Origin: Ancylobacter amanitiformis
Lineage (GTDB): Bacteria; Pseudomonadota; Alphaproteobacteria; Rhizobiales; Xanthobacteraceae
NCBI RefSeq assembly: GCF_030814815.1
Contig: NZ_JAUSVR010000004.1
Span: 264,721-328,720 of the forward strand
Direction: 5' to 3'
DNA: 64,000 bases
Shown here: piece after piece, positions 22,000 through 32,965 of the stretch
How the letters are laid out: every line of letters begins with the position of its first letter
How positions within the stretch are numbered: position 1 is the first letter of the stretch
Notes under the pieces: model-generated
The model's database searches: none
Seen by the model: only the letters and a program-made list of their open reading frames with translations
What the model was told of the DNA's origin: nothing
Program-made: the position numbers and the translations under genes

Positions 22000-22750
22000 C
22001 GAAGTCCCTCGCCAGATAGGAGCGTCGATCAGCACCAGAAGTGTTTGATCCTGCAATCAAATCACGCTGCAAGCCTACTTTTCATCAGCACCCGCTGCAA
22101 CAAGTTTTCTCATGCAAGTCACAGTTCCATCGGCAATGCTTATCGGTGGTGTGGGGCGCTTAGGAGCCAAATTCGCCGAGATGTCGGGGGCGACGAGGTC
22201 TCCCGCGGCCCGCCCGTGCCCCTACGGTCCCTAGACTTCCCCGCTGGCGCCCGTTCGCCCCCTCGACCTAGGCAAGGCACCCCTCGCACCACGTTTGCCC
22301 GTCCTGCGCTCCCTCTGCTCCCCCGTGCGCGCTCCGCACCATGCCGCCGCACATGGCCCGCGCCCTCATGCTGTGCCCGTGCCATCGAGGTCGCCCCGTG
22401 GCTCAACCTTGCGCCATCGATCCTTGGGCATGGGCAAGGCTGCCTCCCGCGATCTTGCGAGCTGCACGCCCCCGCGCATGACGTCCCGGCCTTGGCCGGC
22501 CGATACCTGGCACCCATGCCCCATGCGGGCACACGCGCCCCACCAGCCCATAAGCACGGCGCACGCACAGAGGCGCCCCGCACGCGCACGCACGGGCCTT
22601 GCGCCCTGCTGTGCAACACCACGTGCAGCACAGCACAGCGTGCGCCCTATGCCACGGCCAATCGCATTTCGCGCGCACTCACAGCCGGATAGCCGGCCTT
22701 AGCTGCAGGTAGGCCGAGCACGAAAAAAGTTGTCGACTTGCTCATTTCGA

Positions 22751-22763
22751 GTTGCAAAACAAC
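22751..22763. promoter_or_regulatory. Putative repressor operator GTTGCAAAACAAC
   Basis: A near-perfect dyad (GTTGY-AAA-ACAAC) repeated at 43046 and 44063. It lies 80 bases upstream of the first gene of the rightward small-gene unit, in A/T-rich DNA suited to a promoter. AAAAAAGTTGT 28 bases upstream is shared with the 44-kb site. Confidence 0.6.
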
Positions 22764-22818
22764 ACAAGCCGCAGTACATTTAATTCAACGAAGCAACGGC
22801 GAACGCCACCGCTTCACA

Positions 22819-22830
22819 GGCAACTGTGCC
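22819..22830 (+). promoter_or_regulatory. Leader hairpin 1 of the CA-AYYG-TG family
   Basis: GGCA-ACTG-TGCC: 4-bp stem, loop ACTG, ending 13 bases before the ATG of the 53-residue gene and directly upstream of its GAAGGAAAAG ribosome site. One of six such elements in this operon. Confidence 0.55.
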
Positions 22831-22843
22831 GAAGGAAAAGACG

Positions 22844-23005
22844 ATGAACACCCACAACGAAATCGCCCTCAAGTGGCAAGCCCGTGTTGCCGAAGACCTC
22901 GCGCGGGCGGCCGATTGCCGCGCCCGTGGGTTTGAGGAAGCCGCTGTGCTCTGGGAAGAGAACGCCCGCCGGAACCAGCGCCGCGCGGACCGCGCGGCCT
23001 CCTGA
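22844..23005 (+). CDS. Small helical phage protein, function unknown
   Basis: 53 residues, MNTHNEIALKWQARVAEDLA onward, Ala/Arg/Glu-rich and wholly helical by appearance, with an Arg-rich end. The ATG has a good GAAGGAAAAG site, preceded by hairpin 1. It is the first gene of the rightward unit after the 22.75-kb operator. No family recognised. Confidence 0.6.
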   Translation: MNTHNEIALKWQARVAEDLARAADCRARGFEEAAVLWEENARRNQRRADRAAS

Positions 23006-23014
23006 ACCGCCATC

Positions 23015-23028
23015 CGTCAATCGTGACG
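23015..23028 (+). promoter_or_regulatory. Leader hairpin 2 of the CA-AYYG-TG family
   Basis: CGTCA-ATCG-TGACG: 5-bp stem, loop ATCG, ending 13 bases before the ATG at 23042. The following AAGGAAAAG ribosome site is the same as after hairpin 1. Confidence 0.55.
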
Positions 23029-23041
23029 AAGGAAAAGACCG

Positions 23042-23281
23042 ATGCTCAAAGACTACGCCCGCACCCTCTACAACGCTTCGCGCTTCTGCCTCCGCAATCG
23101 CAAGCACATGACCGCGATTGACGCGGTGGAGATTGTGGCCTTGTCCATGCTGGCCCTGACGCGTGCCGGAAGCCCCACGGCGAAAATGATGATTGGGCAG
23201 GTTCGGGCCAAGGCCCACCGCGTCCAAGCAGCGAAGGGCGTGCGTCACGTCCAGGCCTCGCTGCGCACTGCGAACGTGTGA
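23042..23281 (+). CDS. Small phage protein, function unknown
   Basis: 79 residues: MLKDYARTLYNASRFCLRNR, a hydrophobic helix (AVEIVALSMLALTRA) and a basic C-terminus. The start is set by AAGGAAAAG 6 bases upstream. It sits 36 bases after the first gene of the unit and shares the same leader design. No family recognised; one hydrophobic stretch is too short to call membrane-bound with confidence. Confidence 0.62.
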   Translation: MLKDYARTLYNASRFCLRNRKHMTAIDAVEIVALSMLALTRAGSPTAKMMIGQVRAKAHRVQAAKGVRHVQASLRTANV

Positions 23282-23288
23282 GGGCGCT

Positions 23289-23540
23289 ATGCGGTATATC
23301 GCAGAAACCCCGCGCACCGAATTGCGCGTCGCTATCCGGGCGGGCTGGAGCATGGACCGCGCCGAACATTTTTATCGTTTCGGCATGTTCTCGCCCGCCG
23401 CTATGGACCGCTTCGCGCGCCTTTGGGCGTGGTCCACGGCGACCGAGCACCCGATGACACGGCACGCCTCGCTCAAGCGCTGGGGCGAGCGCCGTGAACG
23501 TATCCGCCGCGCGGTGCGCGCGATCATTGCGAATGCTTGA
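23289..23540 (+). CDS. Small basic phage protein, function unknown
   Basis: 83 residues, MRYIAETPRTELRVAIRAGW onward. It is Arg/Trp-rich with a helix-turn-helix-like run (GWSMDRAEHFYRFGMFSPAA) and a very basic end (ERRERIRRAVRAII). The ATG at 23289 lies 7 bases past the previous stop. DNA binding is possible from charge and helix pattern, but no domain is recognised. Confidence 0.6.
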   Translation: MRYIAETPRTELRVAIRAGWSMDRAEHFYRFGMFSPAAMDRFARLWAWSTATEHPMTRHASLKRWGERRERIRRAVRAIIANA

Positions 23541-23549
23541 GGGGCCAAC

Positions 23550-23882
23550 ATGGACACGGCATTTTATGCAGGCGCGTTCCCCGCGTACACCTCGGCCGAA
23601 CTGCGCCGGTTCATCGCTGAGGGTGCCGCACGGTCGGACGCCATGCGCGCCGAAATCGAACGCCGCGAAGCGGTGGAAGCGGGCGACCTATCCCGGGCCA
23701 CACCGGGCGAGAATCTCGATGCAGCGCGGAGGCACGCGGAAAGTGGGCGCGAGTCGTATGAGGCCAGCCTGCGCCAGCGCCCCAACTATCCGGGAGGGCG
23801 CCCGCGCAGAACGTGGGGCCAACTCGACGATGTCGCGCGGTGGAGTTGGACGCGCGACCAGTCGGCACATCGCACGACGTGA
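23550..23882 (+). CDS. Phage protein, function unknown
   Basis: 110 residues: an N-terminal YAGAFPAYTSAELRRFIAEG, a charged helix (MRAEIERREAVEAG) and a C-terminal Arg/Trp-rich segment. It starts 9 bases after the previous stop. Nothing recognisable is visible beyond the helical content. Confidence 0.6.
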   Translation: MDTAFYAGAFPAYTSAELRRFIAEGAARSDAMRAEIERREAVEAGDLSRATPGENLDAARRHAESGRESYEASLRQRPNYPGGRPRRTWGQLDDVARWSWTRDQSAHRTT

Positions 23883-24037
23883 GCTCTGCAAGCGCGCACC
23901 CGTGCGGTGCGCGTCATGGAGCGCTCGCCGGCCCGTGCTGAACGGGCCAAGGGGCACGCCCCGCGCCGGCCGGATGCCGGTTCCGAAGTGGGAGGGAAGG
24001 GCCATGCTCTGGTCGCTCTCCCTGCTCTGGAAAAGAA

Positions 24038-24070
24038 AAACGGCGACGGTCCGCATAACCATCGCCGTTT
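24038..24070. terminator. Rho-independent terminator, strongest for the minus strand
   Basis: AAACGGCGACGGT pairs with ACCATCGCCGTTT (one C/A mismatch) around a 7-base loop. On the plus strand it is followed by GGTTCTTC; on the minus strand by TTTTTCTTTTC, a classic U-tract. It can end rightward transcription of the 22.8-23.9 kb genes and would block leftward read-through better. Confidence 0.7.
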
Positions 24071-24153
24071 GGTTCTTCTAGCAGCAGGCGCCGGGGGGCA
24101 TTCGCTCCCCGGTTGCCCGGAAGATAAGCCCAGCTGCTCCCCGCCGCAACCCC

Positions 24154-24165
24154 GTCAATCGTGAC
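24154..24165 (+). promoter_or_regulatory. Leader hairpin 3 of the CA-AYYG-TG family
   Basis: GTCA-ATCG-TGAC: 4-bp stem, loop ATCG, ending 18 bases before the ATG at 24184, with GAAAGG between them. Confidence 0.5.
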
Positions 24166-24183
24166 ACCTGAAAGGACCAGATC

Positions 24184-24312
24184 ATGACTAAGCTTGAACG
24201 CAAATGCCGAGCCGCCGTAGCCGACAGCCGCCAGCGCATCTTGCGCACGGCGCGGCGCCAGCGCATCGCGGCGAAGCATGTGGCCCTGTCCGATGCGTTC
24301 ATCTACGCGTGA
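24184..24312 (+). CDS. Very small basic protein, function unknown
   Basis: 42 residues, MTKLERKCRAAVADSRQRIL onward, with about a quarter Arg/Lys and a helical look. Support: GAAAGG ribosome site, leader hairpin 3, and only 7 bases to the next start. No family recognised. Confidence 0.5.
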   Translation: MTKLERKCRAAVADSRQRILRTARRQRIAAKHVALSDAFIYA

Positions 24313-24319
24313 CGTCGCC

Positions 24320-24646
24320 ATGCGCTCCGCTCTGATCCTCGGGGGCGCCCTCGCGCTGGCCGTCTCCGCTCTGAACGCGTCCGGCCCGCCCGTCATGCCC
24401 CTGCACGAACGCATGGCCGTTCTCGCCTCCTCGGGCTGCACCGCCGACATCGTGTGCGACCTGCGCGCGGCGGACCTCGGGTTAGACCCAGTCCTGTTGG
24501 GGATGCCCGATGATGCGCTCTACGCGGCGTGTCTCAAGGGCGCCGAGCCCGCGTGCCTCTACCTCGAAGCGCAGCACCGCGCGCAATGCGCGGACGACAT
24601 GGACCACGACGATTGCGCCGTGTTCCGGGACGAGCCGTCGCACTGA
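24320..24646 (+). CDS. Secreted Cys-rich small protein, function unknown
   Basis: 108 residues. Residues 1-22 (RSALILGGALALAVSALNAS) form a Sec signal peptide: positive start, hydrophobic core, small residues before a cut near 20-22. The mature part has six Cys in three near pairs (GC..DIVC, AC..AEPAC, QC..DHDDC), suggesting disulfides in the periplasm. The ATG at 24320 follows a modest ribosome site; longer in-frame starts would hide the signal peptide. A periplasmic protein in an early phage operon suggests superinfection exclusion or lysogenic conversion, which is inference. Confidence 0.6.
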   Translation: MRSALILGGALALAVSALNASGPPVMPLHERMAVLASSGCTADIVCDLRAADLGLDPVLLGMPDDALYAACLKGAEPACLYLEAQHRAQCADDMDHDDCAVFRDEPSH

Positions 24647-24652
24647 CCACCT

Positions 24653-24664
24653 GGCAATTGTGCC
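24653..24664 (+). promoter_or_regulatory. Leader hairpin 4 of the CA-AYYG-TG family
   Basis: GGCA-ATTG-TGCC: 4-bp stem, loop ATTG, ending 18 bases before the ATG at 24683. Confidence 0.55.
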
Positions 24665-24682
24665 GAATCGAAAGACATCGCC

Positions 24683-25705
24683 ATGACCACCGAAGCGCAC
24701 CCCGTGCACGAAGTTGCGCGGTTCCACGATGACGCCTTGAGCGTGTCGGCCGGCGGGTTCTCGTTGGACCTCACCGTGAAGCAGATCGAAGGCACATGGG
24801 ACGCCCTGTCCCATTTTCCGGATCGCCGCGCCCGCATGGAGCTAGGCGCCCTCGCCGAACGGCTCAACGCCTTCGCGGCGCATGTCGTCGCCACTATCGA
24901 GCGCGGCGGGAATCTCGACGCCTCGGCAGAAGTCGAGCGCTTCGCCGTCCGGCACGTCTCCATGACGCGCCGCGCATGGGCGATGGATTCGCGCTGCATG
25001 TCGTGGTTCGTCGTCGGCCCGGCGCGGTTCCCCGTGGACCGCAACCGCAAGCGCATGGATTGGGCGGAGAACGCCTTCCGCGCCCTTGGCGAGCACGTCA
25101 AAGCCGCACGCGCATCGGTCGAGCGCACCGCGTTCCCGCACGGTGCACCGGGCGAACCGATCCGCGCCAGCAACCCCGATGCGCCGGCGCTTATCCGCGC
25201 CGAGATCGAGAAGCACCGCGCCTCACATGCGCTGATGAAAGCCGCCAACGCGGCGATTCGGTCAGCGAGGGGTAAGGACGTCGACACCAAGGTGCAAGCC
25301 GTGGTCGACGCCACCGGTTGGCGCGAGGCGACGGCCCGGCGCTGCGTTGTCCCGCCTCAAAAATGGATGGGCGCTGGTTTCGCCGCCTATCAGCTTTCGG
25401 GCGAGCTTGCCGAGATCAAGCGGCTGGAGGACCGTCTAGCCACCATCGAGCGGAACCGCGAACGCGGCACGGTGGAGCGCGAGCACAACACGGCTGCCGG
25501 GCGCCTGCGTGTTGTCGAGAACGGCGAGGCCGCGCGCATTCAGCTGTTCTTCGACGGGAAGCCCGCCGCTGAGGTTCGCGACACCTTGAAGCGCGAGGGC
25601 TTCCGCTGGGCGCCGTCCGAGGGCGCGTGGCAGCGGCACCTCAACAACGGCGGACGATACGCCGTCTCGCGTGTCGTGTCGGCGCTCCAGCCGGCAGGGG
25701 CGTGA
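24683..25705 (+). CDS. Phage/plasmid-type protein with C-terminal FDGKP..LK..GFRW motif
   Basis: 340 residues. The N-terminal 200 are helical and charged. Around residues 245-285 there is a coiled-coil-like Arg/Glu stretch. The last 60 residues carry LFFDGKPAAEVRDTLKREGF followed by RWAPSEGAWQRHLNN, a short module found at the end of many phage and plasmid proteins of unknown role (often next to DUF3560-type parts). The start has leader hairpin 4 upstream. The module is known by recurrence; its biochemical role is unknown to me. Confidence 0.7.
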   Translation: MTTEAHPVHEVARFHDDALSVSAGGFSLDLTVKQIEGTWDALSHFPDRRARMELGALAERLNAFAAHVVATIERGGNLDASAEVERFAVRHVSMTRRAWAMDSRCMSWFVVGPARFPVDRNRKRMDWAENAFRALGEHVKAARASVERTAFPHGAPGEPIRASNPDAPALIRAEIEKHRASHALMKAANAAIRSARGKDVDTKVQAVVDATGWREATARRCVVPPQKWMGAGFAAYQLSGELAEIKRLEDRLATIERNRERGTVEREHNTAAGRLRVVENGEAARIQLFFDGKPAAEVRDTLKREGFRWAPSEGAWQRHLNNGGRYAVSRVVSALQPAGA

Positions 25706-25707
25706 CC

Positions 25708-26463
25708 ATGGCGAAGCTCACGAAATCCCAAGCCAAGCACCACGCCGCAGCTGTGGACCTTCTGCGCAAGGACCGCTTGACGGATGACCAGCGCGAATTC
25801 GTGCTGCGCAATTGGCGCGAGGACGCGAACCACGTCAACGGCACCGCCGGGGCGTTCTTCACGCCGCTGGACTTGGCCCTAGACTTCACCATCGAGGTTA
25901 ACGGGCGTCGCATCATCGATCTGTGCGCCGGCATTGGCTGCCTTGCGTTGGCGTGCCACTGGCGCAACGGATGGAACGAGCCGCCGCGCGAAATCGTGTG
26001 CATCGAGAAGAACCCCGACTATGTCGCGGTCGGGCGCAAGCTCCTCCCGGAGGCGCAATGGATTTGCGCCGACATATTCGAACTGCCGTTCCTCGCCGCC
26101 GATCTCGGGCGCTTCGATATCGCTATCAGCAACCCGCCCTTCGGGGCGGTGCGGCGGGCTGGCCGCAACGGGCCGCGATATCGCGGCAATGCCTTCGAAT
26201 ATCACGTCATCGACCTCGCGGCGGACGTTGCGGACGCCGGGACCTTCATCATCCCGCAGAGCTCGGCGCCATTCCGTTACAGCGGACGGCCCTGCTTCGA
26301 GCGACGCGAGGAACCCGGCTACCTCGATTTCAAGAAGGCCACGGGCATCACGCTTCAGCATAACTGCGGCATGGACTGCAACGTTCACAAGGACGGGTGG
26401 CGCGGCGTCTCGCCGACGGTCGAAATCGTGCTCGCGGACTTCACCAACGGCAGGAAGGACTAA
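25708..26463 (+). CDS. SAM-dependent methyltransferase, N6-adenine type (NPPF)
   Basis: 251 residues. A SAM-binding motif I is at IIDLCAGIGCLALAC, the acidic loop at VCIEKNPDY, and the catalytic NPPFG motif follows DIAISNPPFGAV. The GxFFTPLDLA segment resembles N-terminal parts of class I DNA adenine methylases. The ATG at 25708 is 2 bases after the previous stop. DNA modification to evade host restriction is the usual role. No restriction enzyme gene lies nearby. RNA or protein methylation cannot be excluded. Confidence 0.75.
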   Translation: MAKLTKSQAKHHAAAVDLLRKDRLTDDQREFVLRNWREDANHVNGTAGAFFTPLDLALDFTIEVNGRRIIDLCAGIGCLALACHWRNGWNEPPREIVCIEKNPDYVAVGRKLLPEAQWICADIFELPFLAADLGRFDIAISNPPFGAVRRAGRNGPRYRGNAFEYHVIDLAADVADAGTFIIPQSSAPFRYSGRPCFERREEPGYLDFKKATGITLQHNCGMDCNVHKDGWRGVSPTVEIVLADFTNGRKD

Positions 26464-26467
26464 CGTC

Positions 26468-27004
26468 ATGAAAATCCACATTCTCACGGCCGAACACTTC
26501 AGCGTGCCGGGCAACATCACCAAGGCATTCGCGGACCTGGCCGGCGCCGAAGCCGAGGCCATGGACCTGACGAACCTCATGCTTTCCGACAACGGGCAGG
26601 CCAAGAGCGCCAACGCTTCCAACTGGCGCGCCAAGGTTGAGGCGTTGCAGGACGAGCACGGCGCCGCGCATTGCTATGTCGAGATTGCCGAGCACGTCGT
26701 TGTTGGCGCCGTGCCCGATCCGGTTGCCCATGCCCTCCGCCGTGCCGAATCCTTCATCGCCGGCTTCGAGGACGACGAGTCGCAGGACGGCATTCTCGAC
26801 CTGCTGGCGTCGATCCGCGCGGCCATTGCCGGCGCGCCGGCGGACCCGGTCCGCGATGCCGCCCCCCAAATGCTGGCGGCTCTGAAAGAAATAATCACGC
26901 TTCTGGAGCGAGAGAGCAGGAACCCGCGCTGGATACAAACCCACCCTGCCTACCTCCGCGCGATTTCCTCGATCAACAGGGCGGAGGGCCGCGCCAATGG
27001 ATGA
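26468..27004 (+). CDS. Phage protein, function unknown
   Basis: 178 residues: MKIHILTAEHFSVPGNITKA, then a helical body rich in Ala/Asp/Glu, ending RAEGRANG. The ATG is 4 bases past the methyltransferase stop and the end overlaps the next gene by 8 bases. The C-terminal part (MLAALKEIITLLERESRNPR) looks like an isolated helical motif seen in assorted phage proteins. Confidence 0.65.
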   Translation: MKIHILTAEHFSVPGNITKAFADLAGAEAEAMDLTNLMLSDNGQAKSANASNWRAKVEALQDEHGAAHCYVEIAEHVVVGAVPDPVAHALRRAESFIAGFEDDESQDGILDLLASIRAAIAGAPADPVRDAAPQMLAALKEIITLLERESRNPRWIQTHPAYLRAISSINRAEGRANG

Positions 27005-27548
27005 TTTCCCCAGTCGGGATGGCGCTGAAGACGCTGTCCACAAGAGGCTTCGGCGGGCAGTCGAGAAGCGCGAGAAGGCTTATCTCTGGACGCCATCCGA
27101 CGCGATCACCTTCATCCCCCGCGTCTCGCCAACCATTTACGGCGATGGCCGCGCACTCTTCACCATCGCCACGATCAACCAGCGGCCGGCCTATTGGGTG
27201 ATCCGCGCGTGCAGCACTTGGGGCAGCGGAAACGACCGCGAGGATGCGACGGGTCCTGATTTCGGCGAGGTGACCGATCAGATCATGACCGACCTCGAAG
27301 ACCAGTTCGGACGTGGTCGATGCGGCTATTCCGGTAACAGCCTGTTCTGGCCCCGCAAGGAACGCCTCCGCAATTGCCAGTGTGAGGAGTGCGACGAGAA
27401 GAGGTTCAAAGCACGCTGGCCCATGGTCGACGATGACGGCGGCTGCTCATGGTCAAGGTGCGATTGGCCTCCGGGTTTTCCCACCGCACCTAACCCGCTT
27501 TCTTGGCGAGGCAACCTTCTTGCCGAGGAGGGGCGCGCCAATGGCTGA
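26997..27548 (+). CDS. Phage protein with Cys cluster, function unknown
   Basis: 183 residues. An N-terminal basic helix (HKRLRRAVEKREKAYLW) is followed by a beta-rich middle and a C-terminal Cys set (NCQCEECDEKRFKARW, CSWSRCDW) that could bind zinc. It overlaps its neighbours by 8 bases at each end, so it is translated as part of the operon. Confidence 0.65.
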   Translation: MDDFPSRDGAEDAVHKRLRRAVEKREKAYLWTPSDAITFIPRVSPTIYGDGRALFTIATINQRPAYWVIRACSTWGSGNDREDATGPDFGEVTDQIMTDLEDQFGRGRCGYSGNSLFWPRKERLRNCQCEECDEKRFKARWPMVDDDGGCSWSRCDWPPGFPTAPNPLSWRGNLLAEEGRANG

Positions 27549-28101
27549 GCGCAAGGACGGCGGGCCGGCGTTCCCGGTCCAGAACGCCAACTACACTCAC
27601 GCGTATGGCGGCGCGCCTGGCATGTCCTTACGTGACTGGTTTGCTGGCCAAGTTTTATCGTCTGTGGCCAGCTACATGATTGAGAATGCTTACAAAGATG
27701 AAACGAGCAGGGAGGAGGGCATCATCAATGCCGTGCATCTTTCCTACGACATCGCTGACGCGATGGTAGCTGAACGCTCCGGCCCGACAATCACCGACGC
27801 CGACCTCTTCAACTGCTGGTCCGGCGGCGTCAGCCCGACACCCGAAGAAATCGCGCGCTTCGATTGGCTGGAGGTCGGCGGCGTGCGCGACGTCTCCGAG
27901 CCCGGTGACAACGGCACTCACATGGAAGCGTGCGACGACGCCGACGCGGAATTCTGGTCCGTCTATGGGCACTACCGCCCGACGGCGACGCATGTCGGCT
28001 GCGAGTGCATCACGGACGGCCCGCCGGGCGACAAAGAGCGTGCATGGGCCATTGCCGAGCATCTCGGCCGGCTCTGGAATCTTCCGGTGCGAGAGCGATG
28101 A
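27541..28101 (+). CDS. Phage protein of the AERKDGGPAFP...SLRDWFAGQ type
   Basis: 186 residues. The opening AERKDGGPAFPVQNANYTHA and the GMSLRDWFAGQ segment are very common in temperate phages of proteobacteria, in proteins of unknown role; the C-terminal half (FNCWSGGVSPTPEEIARFDW) is specific to this copy. It overlaps both neighbours by a few bases. Confidence 0.7.
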   Translation: MAERKDGGPAFPVQNANYTHAYGGAPGMSLRDWFAGQVLSSVASYMIENAYKDETSREEGIINAVHLSYDIADAMVAERSGPTITDADLFNCWSGGVSPTPEEIARFDWLEVGGVRDVSEPGDNGTHMEACDDADAEFWSVYGHYRPTATHVGCECITDGPPGDKERAWAIAEHLGRLWNLPVRER

Positions 28102-28526
28102 TGGACAGGCAGGAACTGGTGTGGGCACTTTCCCGCATTTCGGCGCCGGTGCGCCCATGTCACTGGATCGCGACGCCGAACGGTGACAACGGCTATGAAT
28201 GGTGCCCTGACTGCGGGTACTTCAAGGTTCGCAACCTTCGCCGACATGACCGTAAGCGCCGCAACGATTACATCCTGGACGGTGGATGGCGGACCTCCCA
28301 TGACAGCATGCCGGGCTGCCATGGGTGCGGGGCTCTCCTAGATGGGTCACTGACATCTTACGGTGCCAGCTCCGAACTCGACTATTACGAGGAAGCTGGG
28401 CTTTCAACAGACCCGAAGGTTGACGCCCTCTACCTGTCCGAAATCCTCGACAACTTGCCGGAAGACGACGGACGGCTTGAACTTGCCATGAGCCTTGCCC
28501 GTGCACTGCTGGAGAAAGAGCGATGA
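28098..28526 (+). CDS. Zinc-ribbon-like phage protein
   Basis: 142 residues from the ATG at 28098 (an ATG follows at 28101). Cys/His pairs at CHW, CPDCGYF and CHGCGALL suggest one or two zinc sites; the C-terminal third is acidic (SEILDNLPEDDGRLELAMSL). The start overlaps the previous stop (ATGA). It is probably a nucleic-acid or protein adaptor; no family recognised. Confidence 0.68.
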   Translation: MMDRQELVWALSRISAPVRPCHWIATPNGDNGYEWCPDCGYFKVRNLRRHDRKRRNDYILDGGWRTSHDSMPGCHGCGALLDGSLTSYGASSELDYYEEAGLSTDPKVDALYLSEILDNLPEDDGRLELAMSLARALLEKER

Positions 28527-28621
28527 GCCGCGTCCGCCGACCCCGCACCGCCTTCCGCTGGCCGAACGGCGAACTCGACGAATACCGGCCGCCGCGTCGA
28601 CGGCGCACGGCGAAGACCTGA
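28523..28621 (+). CDS. Tiny basic protein, function unknown
   Basis: 32 residues, MSRVRRPRTAFRWPNGELDE and an Arg-rich end. The ATGA overlap with the previous stop and a GAGAAAGAG ribosome site are the only support. It ends 5 bases before leader hairpin 5. Confidence 0.4.
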   Translation: MSRVRRPRTAFRWPNGELDEYRPPRRRRTAKT

Positions 28622-28626
28622 CACCA

Positions 28627-28638
28627 GCCAATTGTGGC
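28627..28638 (+). promoter_or_regulatory. Leader hairpin 5 of the CA-AYYG-TG family
   Basis: GCCA-ATTG-TGGC: 4-bp stem, loop ATTG, ending 19 bases before the ATG at 28658. The outer pairs differ from hairpins 1 and 4 but still match. Confidence 0.55.
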
Positions 28639-28657
28639 AAAGCAAAAGGAGAACACC

Positions 28658-28885
28658 ATGGACGACTTCACCGTCTTCGCCGCCCGCTACAACAAGGGCA
28701 AGCTGGTCGTGCGCTGCCCGTCGCCGGACGGATACAAGACCCTCGCGGCGCGCATCATCGGCGACGACCTGAAATGCCGCTTCTCCTACCGGGAAGGTGG
28801 CTACATCGCGTCGGCGACCAAGGTTGAGAAGTTCCGCCGCATTATCGCTGGCCCCACAGCCGCGCCCGCCGGCGCGCCGCTGTGA
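28658..28885 (+). CDS. Small phage protein, function unknown
   Basis: 75 residues, MDDFTVFAARYNKGKLVVRC onward, beta-rich with ARIIGDDLKCRFSYREGGYI in the middle. The ATG at 28658 follows AAAAGGAGAACACC; an in-frame GTG at 28634 lies inside hairpin 5 and is not favoured. The end overlaps the next start by 4 bases. Confidence 0.65.
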   Translation: MDDFTVFAARYNKGKLVVRCPSPDGYKTLAARIIGDDLKCRFSYREGGYIASATKVEKFRRIIAGPTAAPAGAPL

Positions 28886-29088
28886 CGGGCAAGGCGCGAC
28901 CTCTGGTCGCCTACCCCTATCCCGTCGGCGCCAAAGTCGAAGGCGTCGACGCGGCGGGCGCGCGCTTCGCCGGCACGGTGACCGGCATCATCGGGCCCTA
29001 TTCCGTGTGGGTCGACGGCGTCGGCACGCCGGTGAGCCTGATATCGACGCCGCCGACGACGGATGATGCGTTCGACTACGACGAATAG
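28882..29088 (+). CDS. Small beta-rich phage protein, function unknown
   Basis: 68 residues with YPVGAKVEGVDAAGARFAGT then GIIGPYSVWVDGVG, a pattern of short strands like a small SH3-type barrel, and an acidic end (TDDAFDYDE). It is coupled to the previous gene (GTGA overlap region). It is the last gene before the hairpin-rich leader. Confidence 0.6.
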   Translation: MTGKARPLVAYPYPVGAKVEGVDAAGARFAGTVTGIIGPYSVWVDGVGTPVSLISTPPTTDDAFDYDE

Positions 29089-29599
29089 CTCCCCAACCAG
29101 CGCCCTTCGTGGAGGGCGTCAGGGTGGGAAGCCACCGACCGCTCCGCGCTGCACGGCATCGCTTCGCCCTGCGCCGCCACGCGCCTTGACGCACCGCAGC
29201 TCAACGCACCAGCGCCGGCCCTCCGGGGCCGGCATCCCCGAGCCCATGCCGTGGGTTTCGGGATGCCGGAAGGCATCACAAGGCACCGCTTCGCGGCGCC
29301 TCGCAACGCAGCTCCACGCTTCTCCACGCAACGATCTTCCCTAACTAGGACGGCTCCTCCGGGAGCCGTCTCAAGGTGGGGAAACCTGCCACAACGCTTC
29401 GCTCCGCTGCGCGACACCACGCCCCGCAGTACTACTCAACGCAGCGGCCCTCGATCTTCGGATCGGGGGCACCCCCGAGGAGGTCGCGGCCTCTTCCTGG
29501 GTGCTCTCGGGCGCCATCTGCCTCGCAGTGCTTCGCTAGGCTCCACCGCGCAACTCTCCGCGTCGCAACGCTTCCGCCACCTCAACACAGGAGATCCTC
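29089..29599 (+). repeat. Hairpin-rich repeated leader with UNCG loops
   Basis: 511 bases with no supported gene. Stable hairpins: 29101-29118; 29214-29233 (GCCGGCCC stem, loop TCCG); 29231-29267 (long, interrupted, mutually exclusive with the previous one); 29349-29370 (9-bp GACGGCTCC stem, loop TCCG); 29448-29469 (loop TTCG). Between them recur degenerate words: GGTGGGRAA after a hairpin, CGCTTCGC/CGCTCCGC, CCACGCCCCGCAG and CTCAACGCA. C(UNCG)G loops are exceptionally stable in RNA. The region precedes the 200-residue gene at 29600; a similar tract lies at 30250-30350. Confidence 0.6.
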
Positions 29600-30202
29600 A
29601 TGAATTTCACCTCTGCCACCGTCACGCTCAAGTCCATGTCCCCCTACAGCCAGTCCTATGACCACGGGCTGCCGATGCTGAAGGGTGAGGACAAGGGCGA
29701 CTACGATCGCCGGAACTTCATGTCGAAGGCGCACTTCAACGCCGCCGGCCACCTGGTCATCCCCGCCGTCGCCATCCATCAGGCGCTCGTTGCCGCCGCG
29801 AAGTATTCGAAGCGGCAAATCCCGGGGCAGGGCAAGGCGACATGGACCGCGAAATTCAAGAGCGGGCTGATCCTGGCCGAAGATATCGACACCGGCATTC
29901 CGCGTTCCGAGGTCGGCTTCATCGACGTGAAGTGCGATTCCAAGGGAATGACCGGCGCCCAGAAGAGCACGACCGTCACCCGCCGATTCCCGCAGGTCCC
30001 GTCGTGGTCGGCAAGGTTCGACATCTGGATCGTCGACCCGATCATCACCGAGGAGGTCTTCCGCGAAATGGTCGACATCGCCGGGCTGTTCGTCGGCATC
30101 GGCCGCTGGCGGCCGGAGATGAGTGGCGGCATGAACGGCCGGTTCAGCCTCGCCGGTCTTGAGTGGCACGACAACCGTGAGTTCGTGGCCAAGGCCGCCT
30201 GA
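29600..30202 (+). CDS. Phage protein with GxGRWRP..G.NGRF motif, RAMP-like by pattern
   Basis: 200 residues. Visible marks: FMSKAHFNAAGHLVIPAVAI, IHQALVAAAKYSKRQIPGQG, a TTVTRRFPQVPSWSARFDIW stretch, and near the C-terminus FVGIGRWRPEMSGGMNGRF. Proteins of this layout occur in many phages and plasmids as hypotheticals. The glycine-rich loop near the end recalls RAMP/Cas7-type RNA-binding folds, but this is a visual resemblance, not a match I can verify. The ATG has CAGGAGATCCTC upstream and sits directly after a hairpin-rich leader, so an RNA-linked role is worth testing. Confidence 0.6.
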   Translation: MNFTSATVTLKSMSPYSQSYDHGLPMLKGEDKGDYDRRNFMSKAHFNAAGHLVIPAVAIHQALVAAAKYSKRQIPGQGKATWTAKFKSGLILAEDIDTGIPRSEVGFIDVKCDSKGMTGAQKSTTVTRRFPQVPSWSARFDIWIVDPIITEEVFREMVDIAGLFVGIGRWRPEMSGGMNGRFSLAGLEWHDNREFVAKAA

Positions 30203-30362
30203 TCCGGCCCGGCCCCACAAGGGCCGGTTGCCCCGCCCGCCTCGACAAAGGGACGGGCAGGGGAGCCGGTAACGGTTCCACCGCGCTCCGCCACGCCCCG
30301 CAGCGCTACGCAGCGCTACGCTACGCACCTCAACGCAACGCAATCCTTCATGGAGAATGTAG
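30203..30362 (+). repeat. Second short hairpin/ACGC-repeat leader
   Basis: 160 bases with a CCGGCCC-CACAA-GGGCCGG hairpin just after the preceding stop and then an array of ACGC words (CAGCGCTACGCAGCGCTACG, CTCAACGCAACGCAA), sharing CGCTCCGC, CCACGCCCCGCAG and CTCAACGCA with the 29.1-29.6 kb leader. It ends at the GGAGAATGTAG ribosome site of the next gene. Confidence 0.5.
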
Positions 30363-30878
30363 ATGTTCAAATCATCTTCTGAAAAGCTTCTCGTCCGCAT
30401 CGCCGTCCTGCAAATACTTTACGAGACACCGATCGGCGGCACCGTTACCTATGCCAAGATCCACGAAATCACAGGCCTCGATGCCCAGTCCGCACGCCCG
30501 TTCATCTACGGCGCCATGCAGCGGGCGAACAAGGAGCGGGGTCTTCTGTTCGAGAATGAGCGCGACGTCGGCTATCGCCGGATCGAGCAGGAACACGCGC
30601 CGGGGCTCGGGCTGAAGGCTCGGCAATCTATCGGGCGCAAGGCACGCAGGACCGCCGTCGCCCTCACCAGGTTCACGCTCAACAGCAATGGGCTGGAGCC
30701 GGAGGTGGCGAAGAAGGTGAATCGCGAGATCGCGCTAGCCGGACTGATCGAATACAGCGCGAGCAGCAAGGGCATGCGTGCGGTCGAGGCATCGGAAAGC
30801 GCTGAGAACCCCAGGGTGTCGACCGCGACCGCGGGCGCGGCCATATTGGCGAAGCTGAACGCCCGGGATAAGGGCTGA
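30363..30878 (+). CDS. Winged-helix-like phage protein, function unknown
   Basis: 171 residues. Residues 5-75 (SEKLLVRIAVLQILYETPIG, VTYAKIHEITGLDAQSARPF, then GLLFENERDVGYRRI) have the helix-helix-wing order of a winged helix; the middle is basic (KARQSIGRKARRTAV) and the end Ala-rich. It lies between the GRF-motif gene and the HerA-like ATPase. DNA or RNA binding is the natural guess; no named family recognised. Confidence 0.62.
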   Translation: MFKSSSEKLLVRIAVLQILYETPIGGTVTYAKIHEITGLDAQSARPFIYGAMQRANKERGLLFENERDVGYRRIEQEHAPGLGLKARQSIGRKARRTAVALTRFTLNSNGLEPEVAKKVNREIALAGLIEYSASSKGMRAVEASESAENPRVSTATAGAAILAKLNARDKG

Positions 30879-30890
30879 ACACCCACCTTA

Positions 30891-30904
30891 CTCCAATCGT
30901 GGAG
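30891..30904 (+). promoter_or_regulatory. Leader hairpin 6 of the CA-AYYG-TG family
   Basis: CTCCA-ATCG-TGGAG: 5-bp stem, loop ATCG, ending 9 bases before the ATG at 30914. Here the 3' arm contains GGAG, so the hairpin may also mask the ribosome site. Confidence 0.55.
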
Positions 30905-30913
30905 AACCAAGAG

Positions 30914-32239
30914 ATGCGGGTCGACCTCGCCCCGGGCCATGGCATCGCCCTGAAGTATGCCAACCGCCACGGACTGATCACCGGCAGCACCGGTGCCGGC
31001 AAGACGACCACGCTCCAGCGCCTCGCCGAGGGATTCAGCGCCGCTGGCGTGCCGGTCTTCGCCGCCGATGTGAAGGGCGACCTCTCTGGCGTCTCCACCG
31101 CCTTCCCCGTGCGGTTCTGGGACGTCTTCGGCGACCTCGGTATGCCCATCAAGACGTCGGTCGAGGAGATGGGCCCGGACCTGATGGCCCGCCTGCTCAA
31201 CCTCAACGCGACGCAGGAGGGTGTTCTCCACGTCGCCTATCGCTGGCTGTCCGATCCCGACTTCCACCCCGGGGCATCGCTGATGATGGACCTGGACGGG
31301 CTGCGCGCCAGCATCACGGACATGCTCGACCACCGGGAGGCGCTGCGCACGCGCCACGGCAACGTCACGGCAGCGTCAATCGGCGCCATCCAGCGTTCTA
31401 TGCTGGTGCTGGAAGGGCAGGGCGGCGGCAACCTGTTCGGCGAACCGTCCTTCGACATCATGGATCTGCTGGAGACAGCGCCGGACGGCCGCGGCGTCAT
31501 CAACCTGCTAGCCGCCCAGCGTCTCATGGATGCGCCCCGCACCTATGGCGCGCTGATGCAGTGGCTCCTCATGCGCCTGTTCGCGGCGCTGCCCGAGGCC
31601 GGCGACCTCGACAAGCCGAAGCTCGTCATCTTTCTCGATGAAGCACATCTGCTGTTCGACGGGGCTTCGCGGACAATCCTCGACACGATCGAGCGCACCG
31701 TCCGCCTGATCCGCTCCAAGGGCGTCGGCGTCTATTTCGTGACGCAGCACCCGCTCGACGTCCCCGAAAGCGTGCTCGGCCAGCTCGGCAACAAGATCCA
31801 ACACAGCCTGCGTGCCTTCACCCCGCGCGACGCGCGGGCGGTGCGCACTGCAGCGGCATCCTTCCGCCAGAACCCGGACGTCGAGGCCGAGCGCGAGATT
31901 ACCGAGATGCGGGTCGGCGAGGCGCTGGTGTCCTTCCTCGATGCCGGCGGCGCGCCCAGCCCCGTCCAGAAGGTCAAGATCGACTTCCCGACCGCGCAGG
32001 TCGGCCCTATCCGCTTCGGCCAGCGCATGGACATGATCCGGCAGGACCCGCTGGCCGACCACTACGGCGTGACGTTCGACGATCGCGACGCCATGTTCGA
32101 CGCCTTCCGGGCGCGCTATCAGAACAACCAGGCCGTCAAGGCCATCCAGGCAGAGGAGGTCCAATCATGGCGCCGCGCTTCGAATATGACCGCCTCACCG
32201 CCGAGCAGTTCCGCAACGGACTGCGCGATGCAGGTGTGA
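30914..32239 (+). CDS. HerA-like ATPase (DUF853 type)
   Basis: 441 residues. Walker A GSTGAGKT is at 24-31, the following PVFAADVKGDLSGV segment and later LVIFLDEAHLLFD (Walker B) and VYFVTQHPLDVPESVLGQLG are typical of the HerA/FtsK-related DUF853 ATPases. These are hexameric DNA motors, sometimes partnered with nucleases in repair or in anti-phage systems. The ATG at 30914 was chosen; a GTG at 30899 lies inside hairpin 6. The C-terminus runs 73 bases into the next gene in another frame, so the last 25 residues may be a late frame slip. Confidence 0.82.
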   Translation: MRVDLAPGHGIALKYANRHGLITGSTGAGKTTTLQRLAEGFSAAGVPVFAADVKGDLSGVSTAFPVRFWDVFGDLGMPIKTSVEEMGPDLMARLLNLNATQEGVLHVAYRWLSDPDFHPGASLMMDLDGLRASITDMLDHREALRTRHGNVTAASIGAIQRSMLVLEGQGGGNLFGEPSFDIMDLLETAPDGRGVINLLAAQRLMDAPRTYGALMQWLLMRLFAALPEAGDLDKPKLVIFLDEAHLLFDGASRTILDTIERTVRLIRSKGVGVYFVTQHPLDVPESVLGQLGNKIQHSLRAFTPRDARAVRTAAASFRQNPDVEAEREITEMRVGEALVSFLDAGGAPSPVQKVKIDFPTAQVGPIRFGQRMDMIRQDPLADHYGVTFDDRDAMFDAFRARYQNNQAVKAIQAEEVQSWRRASNMTASPPSSSATDCAMQV

Positions 32240-32472
32240 GCGTATCCGCTTTCGCACGCATATTCGGCGTGCGTCTCAAGCGCGCCGAGGAGTGGGCTCG
32301 CGGCGCTGAGGATATTCCGACTTGGGTGCGCCCTGTGCTGCGGATGCTGCTAAACGCCCAATCGCAAGATGCTGCACGCGCGGCGGCGGCGGAGATGATT
32401 CGAGCCGACAACCTACAGCCTTCCTTGGGACCTTACCCCTACTTGCAGATGCGCGAGAGCCCACAGACTTGA
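32167..32472 (+). CDS. HTH (XRE-like) small regulator
   Basis: 101 residues. LTAEQFRNGLRDAGVSVSAF then ARIFGVRLKRAEEWARGAED has the two-helix pattern of an XRE-type HTH in which a phage-like regulator also recognises the preceding ATPase unit. It has GAGGAGGTCC upstream of its ATG and overlaps the ATPase gene by 73 bases. Confidence 0.65.
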   Translation: MAPRFEYDRLTAEQFRNGLRDAGVSVSAFARIFGVRLKRAEEWARGAEDIPTWVRPVLRMLLNAQSQDAARAAAAEMIRADNLQPSLGPYPYLQMRESPQT

Positions 32473-32484
32473 CGGTACCGCTTT

Positions 32485-32507
32485 CCCTGCTCCACCATCA
32501 CGCAGGG
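32485..32507 (+). promoter_or_regulatory. Hairpin next to the ribosome site of the membrane protein gene
   Basis: CCCTGC pairs with GCAGGG around an 11-base loop; the 3' arm runs straight into the GGGGAGG ribosome site of the gene at 32517. It could limit initiation. Confidence 0.4.
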
Positions 32508-32516
32508 GAGGCCATC

Positions 32517-32720
32517 ATGACCATCATCATCTTCGGCGCGATCGTCGTCATCATCTTGGTCGCTACCGTGCGCATTCTCGCCGGCTGGTTCCTCCCGGCA
32601 CATGTGGCGGCGGGTCTCGGTCGGGCGATCGGCGGCACCTTCGAATTCGTCGGGAAGCTGAGCATCGTGTTGCTCTGCCTCGGCATCATCGGCTTGATCA
32701 TCGCGGCGATGTTGCACTGA
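32517..32720 (+). CDS. Small two-helix membrane protein
   Basis: 67 residues. Two strongly hydrophobic helices: residues 2-24 (TIIIFGAIVVIILVATVRIL) and about 46-65 (LSIVLLCLGIIGLIIAAML), with a short amphipathic loop between. Last gene of the rightward unit, converging on the leftward operon. Size and topology would suit a holin or superinfection-exclusion protein, but without a neighbouring endolysin this is not assignable. Confidence 0.65.
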   Translation: MTIIIFGAIVVIILVATVRILAGWFLPAHVAAGLGRAIGGTFEFVGKLSIVLLCLGIIGLIIAAMLH

Positions 32721-32736
32721 GGCGTCTCTTCAACCC

Positions 32737-32761
32737 CTGAGATCCAGCCTCACTGTCTCAG
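32737..32761. terminator. Weak inverted repeat at convergent gene ends
   Basis: CTGAGA (32737-32742) and TCTCAG (32756-32761) flank the stop of the minus-strand gene at 32750, between two converging units. A 6-bp stem with a 13-base loop and no U-tract; a bidirectional terminator is only possible. Confidence 0.3.
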
Positions 32762-32965
32762 CCGCGTGTGACGATCGAGGATGTTCTCGGCAGCGCGGCC
32801 AGCGTTGATCGCCGGGCTTGCATCGCCGCCCCACGCAGGGTCGTAGGACCACAAGCCAGCCGCTGCGAGCGTGTACAGGAGCGCGACAGGCACAACGACA
32901 TGGGTGCCGGACGCCACCTTGTTGTATGCGTCCTGCGCGGCTTCTGCGCGAGTTTCGATCTTCAT
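32750..32965 (-). CDS. Small phage protein with one hydrophobic helix
   Basis: 71 residues: a charged N-terminal helix (KIETRAEAAQDAYNKVAS), a hydrophobic segment (HVVVPVALLYTLAAAGLW) and a polar end. The ATG at 32965 has GGGAGGGATCGG upstream. Last gene of the leftward early operon; overlaps the previous stop by 4 bases. Confidence 0.62.
   Translation of the reverse strand: MKIETRAEAAQDAYNKVASGTHVVVPVALLYTLAAAGLWSYDPAWGGDASPAINAGRAAENILDRHTRLRQ

What the first reader, a model, noticed from the sequence alone, without database searches (positions are those of the whole stretch)
22819..30904. Six leader hairpins with an invariant CA-AYYG-TG core upstream of start codons in one operon
Six elements lie 9-19 bases upstream of ATGs: GGCA-ACTG-TGCC (22819), CGTCA-ATCG-TGACG (23015), GTCA-ATCG-TGAC (24154), GGCA-ATTG-TGCC (24653), GCCA-ATTG-TGGC (28627), CTCCA-ATCG-TGGAG (30891). 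The loop AYYG and its closing CA/TG pairs are fixed; the outer pairs change but always match (GG/CC, GT/AC, GC/GC, TC/GA), which is compensatory variation. All sit next to the ribosome site and only in the 22.8-32.7 kb unit. This looks like a family of translational operators for one RNA-binding protein, comparable in size to coat-protein or RegA-type operators but with a loop I do not recognise. A DNA-binding protein reading the palindrome is the alternative.
Basis: seen in the sequence. Interest (0 to 1): 0.82.

Follow-up and report, generated by a model that had tools for sequence, protein, structure and literature searches.

The report
Phage hairpin switches before start codons
In this prophage and 14 other phage or prophage stretches, short sequences with a conserved loop and freely varying but matching arms sit just upstream of the start codons of early genes, and a small helix-turn-helix protein encoded with them likely grips the RNA hairpins they would form and is predicted to switch off translation.

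Summary
Six CA-AYYG-TG elements lie 9-19 nt before ATGs; none of 3000 shuffles gave more than one. Fifteen phage or prophage sets hold 85 start-associated elements. Without requiring pairing, the first outer pair is Watson-Crick in 77 of 79 cores near starts against 18 of 61 elsewhere; G-C, C-G and T-A alternate, also at orthologous genes; some closing A-U pairs become G-U; orientation follows the gene. That fits an RNA hairpin, not a DNA palindrome. No Rfam match.

One protein family, a ~100-residue helix-turn-helix protein (window 32167-32472), is in all 15 sets; its modelled fold is closest to Aca2, a regulator with a published RNA complex. In five sets its own gene or a copy carries an element. 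Two contigs with the other common small protein (Arg-rich) but not this one have no elements. Against it: homologues in four other genomes lack elements, 26 of 28 single-element contigs lack the protein, and one host gene, rpsF, carries an element in the window's genome. Binding and repression are inferred. Best reading: a phage-encoded translational-operator regulon with a new hairpin code.

The parts
22819..22830 (+). Element 1, GGCA-ACTG-TGCC, 13 nt before the ATG of a 53-aa gene (22844-23005)
23015..23028 (+). Element 2, CGTCA-ATCG-TGACG, 13 nt before the ATG of a 79-aa gene (23042-23281)
24154..24165 (+). Element 3, GTCA-ATCG-TGAC, 18 nt before the ATG of the Arg-rich 42-aa gene
24653..24664 (+). 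Element 4, GGCA-ATTG-TGCC, 18 nt before the ATG of a primase-like gene (24683-25705)
28627..28638 (+). Element 5, GCCA-ATTG-TGGC, 19 nt before the ATG of a 75-aa gene (28658-28885)
30891..30904 (+). Element 6, CTCCA-ATCG-TGGAG, 9 nt before the ATG of the HerA-like gene; the GGAG lies inside the 3' arm
24184..24312 (+). Arg-rich 42-aa protein under element 3; relatives stand under an element in 11 of the 15 sets
30914..32239 (+). HerA-like ATPase gene under element 6
   Evidence: (HerA_C E 3e-154)
32167..32472 (+). Helix-turn-helix protein of 101 aa, candidate reader of the hairpins, at the downstream end of the element-bearing unit; no element directly before it in the window

Best explanation
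The elements are likely translational operators: each would form a small RNA hairpin (tetraloop ANNG, mostly AYYG, closed by A-U or G-U on C-G, with an outer stem of any paired sequence) that a phage-encoded helix-turn-helix protein (window 32167-32472) is predicted to bind, holding the ribosome off the adjacent Shine-Dalgarno and so limiting translation of early and replication genes. Shown: place next to the ribosome site, orientation with the gene, free but matched arms, recurrence in 15 sets, the HTH gene in all 15, its position at or near the downstream end of the element array, and an element before it or a copy of it in five (one with a 3-bp stem only). Inferred: that the unit acts as RNA, that the HTH protein reads it, that loop and closing pairs carry the recognition, and that the effect is repression, with feedback on the HTH gene where that bears an element. 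In element 6 the GGAG ribosome site lies inside the stem, so clamping that hairpin shut would repress HerA.
For: Covariation without selecting for pairing: outer pairs 1 and 2 paired in 77 and 69 of 79 near-start cores, 18 and 18 of 61 elsewhere; 49 and 41 of 51 after removing the window and pattern-ascertained elements; 13 and 12 of 13 in contigs found by protein only. Covariation score 0.509 against at most 0.085 slid, 0 of 500 shuffles. Closing A-U to G-U: both outer pairs matched in 8 of 15 near starts, 10 of 160 elsewhere. Reverse-complement core near starts in 11 of 138, core in 79 of 140. HTH: the one family shared by all 11 sets with enough sequence; then found in J, K and M, first met by DNA pattern, and L, met by the HTH itself, which has elements. 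Absent in 16 of 16 control contigs and in 2 of 2 contigs that have the Arg-rich protein without it, where 133 kb hold no element. Element before the HTH gene or a copy: F, G, I, J, E2. Fold closest to Aca2; Aca2-RNA complex in print (PMC11239489, passages).
Against: Four genomes with convincing longer homologues of the HTH (G307, G306, G375, G326) and eight with weaker ones show no element with both outer pairs in the stretches read. 26 of 28 single-element contigs lack the HTH and the other 2 have weak hits; either those elements are chance or another reader exists. In 10 of 15 sets no element stands before the HTH gene. Foldseek's best E is 0.035, none under 0.001; no sequence link to Aca2. 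The hairpins are weak: in 3 of 6 window cases the minimum-energy fold is another and no z-score is below -0.55. A host rpsF element hints at a host role. Two measures (pairs with changes on both sides, pair types) do not exceed shuffles.
Confidence: 0.48

Rival explanations
1. The small Arg-rich protein (window 24184-24312) reads the hairpins, like an arginine-rich RNA-binding peptide, and represses its own and other early genes.
For: It or a relative is in 12 sets at E 5e-11 or better and weakly in B (E 7e-4), and stands under an element in 11, the pattern of an autogenous regulator.
Against: Two contigs with it but without the HTH have no element in 133 kb. In B and M no element stands directly before it; in D no convincing relative was found; J has other small basic genes under elements.
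Confidence: 0.12
2. A host factor (ribosomal or another host RNA-binding protein) reads the hairpins, and phages exploit it; the HTH merely travels with this operon type.
For: One host gene, rpsF, carries a 6-bp stem with loop ATCG and a GGAAAGG site in the window's genome, and the other genome of the genus keeps the hairpin with loop ATAG. 26 of 28 single-element contigs lack the HTH.
Against: rpsF leaders of 28 of 30 genomes of the order and of 2 of 2 of the family show no such hairpin; the 2 others have CGCCGGTG, not the core. No second host gene with the full layout was seen among 20 hits read. The element arrays track one phage gene.
Confidence: 0.17
3. DNA operators: a dimeric HTH protein binds the palindromes in duplex DNA, as a roadblock or stoperator near gene starts.
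For: The sites are short palindromes and the co-occurring protein has an HTH fold close to Aca1 and Aca2, both solved with palindromic or operator DNA.
Against: Arm bases vary among G-C, C-G and T-A yet match. A-U to G-U at the closing pair keeps an RNA pair but breaks DNA symmetry. One orientation prevails next to starts.
Confidence: 0.07
4. The HTH or another protein binds the hairpins but the outcome is activation, mRNA protection or processing rather than repression.
For: Most ribosome sites lie outside the stem (62 of 70 elements have a recognisable site downstream of the 4-bp stem), so a bound protein could also recruit or protect.
Against: In element 6 the GGAG is inside the stem, which fits repression; an element before the regulator's own gene is the usual layout of negative feedback (general knowledge).
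Confidence: 0.11

Closest known systems
Aca2, anti-CRISPR-associated HTH regulator of Pectobacterium phage ZF40
   Different: No sequence link; many targets per phage, replication and small early genes instead of an acr-aca pair; different hairpin code.
Start-associated sequences (SAS/ESAS) of cluster K mycobacteriophages
   Same: Repeated elements at translation starts of a subset of genes, oriented with the genes, function unknown but translation suspected (PMC3203893, passages).
   Different: SAS is an asymmetric 13-mer, GGGATAGGAGCCC, not found here beyond chance (one 2-mismatch site, 2.1 expected); here arms are free and only pairing is kept.
RNA-phage coat-protein operators and T4 RegA operators (both recalled)
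   Same: Small site or hairpin at the ribosome site read by one phage protein that represses translation; several targets for RegA.
   Different: Loop ANNG on C-G plus A/G-U instead of ANYA with a bulge; other protein fold; DNA phages of Alphaproteobacteria.
rpsF leader read by S6:S18 (recalled)
   Same: Hairpin in the rpsF 5' region; the window's host has an element there.
   Different: The element hairpin is missing from nearly all other rpsF leaders read.

Membership tests
Aca2 family | HTH fold like Aca2 | tested here: met
Aca2 family | Detectable sequence similarity to Aca2 | tested here: not met
   Profile search of PDB sequences lists 9 chains up to E 10, none Aca2
Aca2 family | Binds RNA hairpins and palindromic DNA | not testable with these tools
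   Needs a binding assay
Aca2 family | Lies in an acr-aca operon | not tested
   No search for anti-CRISPR genes was made
SAS/ESAS | 13-mer GGGATAGGAGCCC at gene starts | tested here: not met
SAS/ESAS | Located at translation starts, oriented with the gene | tested here: met
Known RNA families (Rfam 15) | Match at the gathering score | tested here: not met
   Window 22600-32800: one sub-threshold match, E 0.24, other strand
Coat-protein operator (ANYA hairpin) | ANYA tetraloop | tested here: not met
   Loops AYYG and ANNG; the ANYA definition is recalled
Protein-read RNA translational operators (general kind) | Conserved pairing with variable stem sequence next to ribosome sites | tested here: met
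Protein-read RNA translational operators (general kind) | Trans-acting protein binds and changes translation | not testable with these tools
   Needs binding and reporter assays

The most novel reading that the evidence does not exclude
RNA-reading HTH proteins would then be a widespread regulatory class rather than one anti-CRISPR example.
Probability: 0.47. Interest if true: 0.88.

Novelty: new variant of a known kind. Interest (0 to 1): 0.78.

Why it matters
Translational operators are mostly known one or two at a time. It makes two open questions directly testable: how DNA-binding folds come to read RNA, and how phages time early protein synthesis after transcription. A tiny operator whose stem sequence is free would also be a useful control part.

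Tried and rejected
Known RNA family: none in Rfam for the unit. Known phages: no near DNA match among 50,697 phage records; the HerA protein has only distant matches there (30 records, all under 60% identity); the HTH none or one distant. Bare hairpin as a barrier: energies too weak. Other hairpin types near starts in the sets: CA-AYYG-TG stands out among tetraloops, other loops stay low. A different recurrent hairpin in HTH-bearing genomes without elements: none convincing. Genome search with the Arg-rich profile: marginal hits, and it missed even the window's own gene. rpsF as a general host member of the family: not supported in the order. Single-element contigs from the pattern scans were not counted as members. 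Literature: searches (terms as entered, open-access library only) showed no description of this system; the Aca2 translation paper is not held.

I therefore withdrew 'only the prophage carries it', raised the host-factor rival from 0.12 to 0.17 and lowered the best reading from 0.5 to 0.48 and the novel case from 0.5 to 0.47.
Full report
WHAT WAS CHECKED. The six elements are present at the stated coordinates on the + strand, each with perfect arms around CA-AYYG-TG. The 8-base core alone is unremarkable (11 found, 6.6 expected). Core plus matched arms plus position is not: 6 of 20 upstream regions (one set two bases off its ATG) against a shuffled mean of 0.002 and maximum 1 in 3000; for any closing pair and purine/pyrimidine loop class, no shuffle has more than 2 regions in one class. 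Phages met by protein similarity (primase-like protein; HerA) show the same elements: five in the Ancylobacter phage, four before starts in the Microvirga one, two in a metagenomic one (hosts named through). A covariance model from the six alone ranks nine true elements first in 200 kb; three more rank 11, 21 and 25.

HOW FAR IT EXTENDS. Most hits are isolated; several contigs carry arrays. Fifteen sets were studied: window (A), Ancylobacter G406 (A2), Microvirga G405 (B), G407 (C), G397 (D), G398 (E), G399 (E2), G400 (F), G401 (G), G402 (H), genome G158 (I), L250/G412 (J), L478 (K), L479 (L), L473 (M). G403 and G404 repeat H and L010 the window's own phage, so they are not counted. Asking for two matched outer pairs, a Shine-Dalgarno-like site and an open frame, they hold 85 elements, 2 to 10 per set; one in C and one in D lie on the other strand and are probably chance. 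J, there counted from 3.6 kb, has nine plus one stray when 35 kb are read.

WHY RNA. Choosing cores only by the 8 bases and a nearby start, the next pair outwards is Watson-Crick in 77 of 79 and the one after in 69 of 79, against 18 and 18 of 61 elsewhere in the same sets (on the first 12 sets 74 and 66 of 76 against 16 and 17 of 54). Dropping the window, and in contigs found by pattern every element that fits a scanned pattern, leaves 51: 49 and 41 paired; types at pair 1 are GC 19, TA 15, CG 15, where independence predicts 33 percent paired. In the four sets met by protein only: 13 and 12 of 13, against 4 and 7 of 15 elsewhere. On 68 distinct sequences the covariation score is 0.509, at most 0.085 when the partner is slid, 0 of 500 shuffles as high; two other measures there (pairs with changes on both sides, pair types) do not exceed shuffles. 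Related rows count many times in such scores, so orthologous sites matter more. The Arg-rich gene has GT/AC in A, A2 and F, GC/GC in C, GCT/AGC in E, GGC/GCC in E2, TGG/CCA in G, GGG/CCC in H, K and L, TGC/GCA in I; the clamp gene has GC/GC in A2 and B, CG/CG in D, GT/AC in E2 and G, GG/CC in I (letters, genes). The commonest single change of the core near starts is A to G in the closing pair, A-U to G-U: both outer pairs match in 8 of 15 near starts and 10 of 160 elsewhere; 3 of 4 elements in M are of this kind. CA-ANNG-TG with other middle bases: 10 of 20 near, 19 of 161 elsewhere. CG closing with non-YY loops shows no excess (1 of 29, 24 of 406). The reverse-complement core is near a start in 11 of 138 cases (4 with matched arms), the core in 79 of 140. 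From the end of a 4-bp stem to the ATG the median is 20 nt, range 7-27 in 70 elements. The hairpins are weak: in 3 of 6 window cases the minimum-energy fold is another, which speaks for a stabilising partner rather than a bare barrier.

WHAT IS REGULATED. Genes under elements include beta clamps (Pfam in A2, B, E2 and I; D and G by resemblance), HerA-like ATPase (A by Pfam; A2 82% identical), a primase-like protein, many small unknowns, and a 32-47 aa Arg-rich protein in 11 sets: early and replication genes, by inference.

THE CANDIDATE READER. All-against-all comparison of 6442 open frames in 12 sets gave one family present in all 11 sets with enough sequence, the HTH protein of window 32167-32472 (invariant Y7, L19, G34, W43, P51). 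K, L, M and the rest of J were not in that comparison; the HTH was then found in each. J, K and M were first met through DNA patterns, L through the HTH alone, and L has elements. The gene lies on the strand of the elements, at the downstream end of the array, except that one element lies further down in I. In the 50 records the HTH is strong in these 4, weak (E about 1e-6) in 2 of 28 single-element contigs and absent in 26, absent in 16 of 16 controls (pattern hits that fail the start test in the loci held), and absent in 2 of 2 contigs with only the Arg-rich protein, which have no element in the 133 kb read (about 5 kb of one was not read). A shorter-range count gave 13 of 84 loci with an element against 0 of 204 without, but 6 of the 13 repeat sets already used and 6 more are weak hits. 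An element stands before the HTH gene or a copy in F, G, I, J (shorter copy) and, with a 3-bp stem, E2; in the other ten none was seen or looked for. Against the link: four genomes with convincing longer homologues (G307, G306, G375, G326) and eight with weaker ones have no element with both outer pairs in the stretches read; there hardly any gene of the unit was found (a partial match in L457 and one in L459).

THE HOST GENE. Of 22 hits of the family model in the host genome, 20 were read. One search read nine on the wrong strand; one search repaired this. Besides the six, one has the full layout: TCCGCA-ATCG-TGCGGA, then GGAAAGG, then rpsF, the gene of ribosomal protein S6 (Pfam S6 match at the same place). 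The other genome of the genus keeps the hairpin with loop ATAG. Two genomes of the family and 28 of 30 of the order do not have it; the two others have CGCCGGTG. So this is a lineage-specific host site: chance, a host use of the same reader, or a host gene reached by the phage regulator.

MECHANISM. I commit to protein-clamped translational repression. A hairpin ending 7-27 nt before the ATG would overlap or abut the upstream edge of an initiating 30S (general knowledge). In element 6 the GGAG lies in the 3' arm, so a stabilised hairpin hides it. Where the HTH gene has an element, feedback follows; its place at the end of the unit would delay shut-off. Activation, a host reader and the Arg-rich protein are not excluded. 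Hosts rest on record names: Ancylobacter and Microvirga; Bauldia and Aurantimonas for HTH relatives; Rhizobium and Hoeflea for Arg-rich relatives.

Noticed in passing
L513 (host contig C2, around 451047-451062, - strand); L575: Host rpsF (ribosomal protein S6) carries an element-like hairpin with a 6-bp stem and loop ATCG in the window's genome, and loop ATAG in the other genome of the genus, but not in nearly all other genomes of the order that were read.
   Followed up: partly
P0006, P0008-P0022; L456, L457, L459, L461: A longer form of the HTH protein with a conserved N-terminal part (often ADKPASRPIAKAL) occurs in Alphaproteobacteria; four genomes with such long homologues had no elements nearby, so it may read another site.
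   Followed up: partly
L423:2198-3838: In the Ancylobacter polymorphus phage the HerA frame runs on without a stop through the HTH gene (546 aa), so a HerA-HTH fusion could be made; in the window the two genes overlap in different frames.
   Followed up: no
L543:2008-3035: The phage in record G412 has two HTH family copies in a row; the short one stands under an element and its match contains stops.
   Followed up: partly
L206, L230, L235-L237, L264, L276, L288, L294 and others: Many contigs share one isolated hairpin, TTGG-CAATYGTG-CCA directly before TAAAGGAG and an ATG; it may be an unrelated or a relative element. Two of these contig types were checked for the HTH and one (L206) has none.
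   Followed up: no
L205, L224, L277, L287, L295, L309: A related group of contigs has a hairpin AGGG-CAATTGTG-CCC before an AAAAAAGGA site and ATG, and a short generic-looking HTH gene with only weak similarity to the family.
   Followed up: no
29100-29590 and 30280-30350: Stretches without an obvious gene, rich in short CAACGC/CTACGC-like repeats, before the genes at 29600 and 30363.
   Followed up: no
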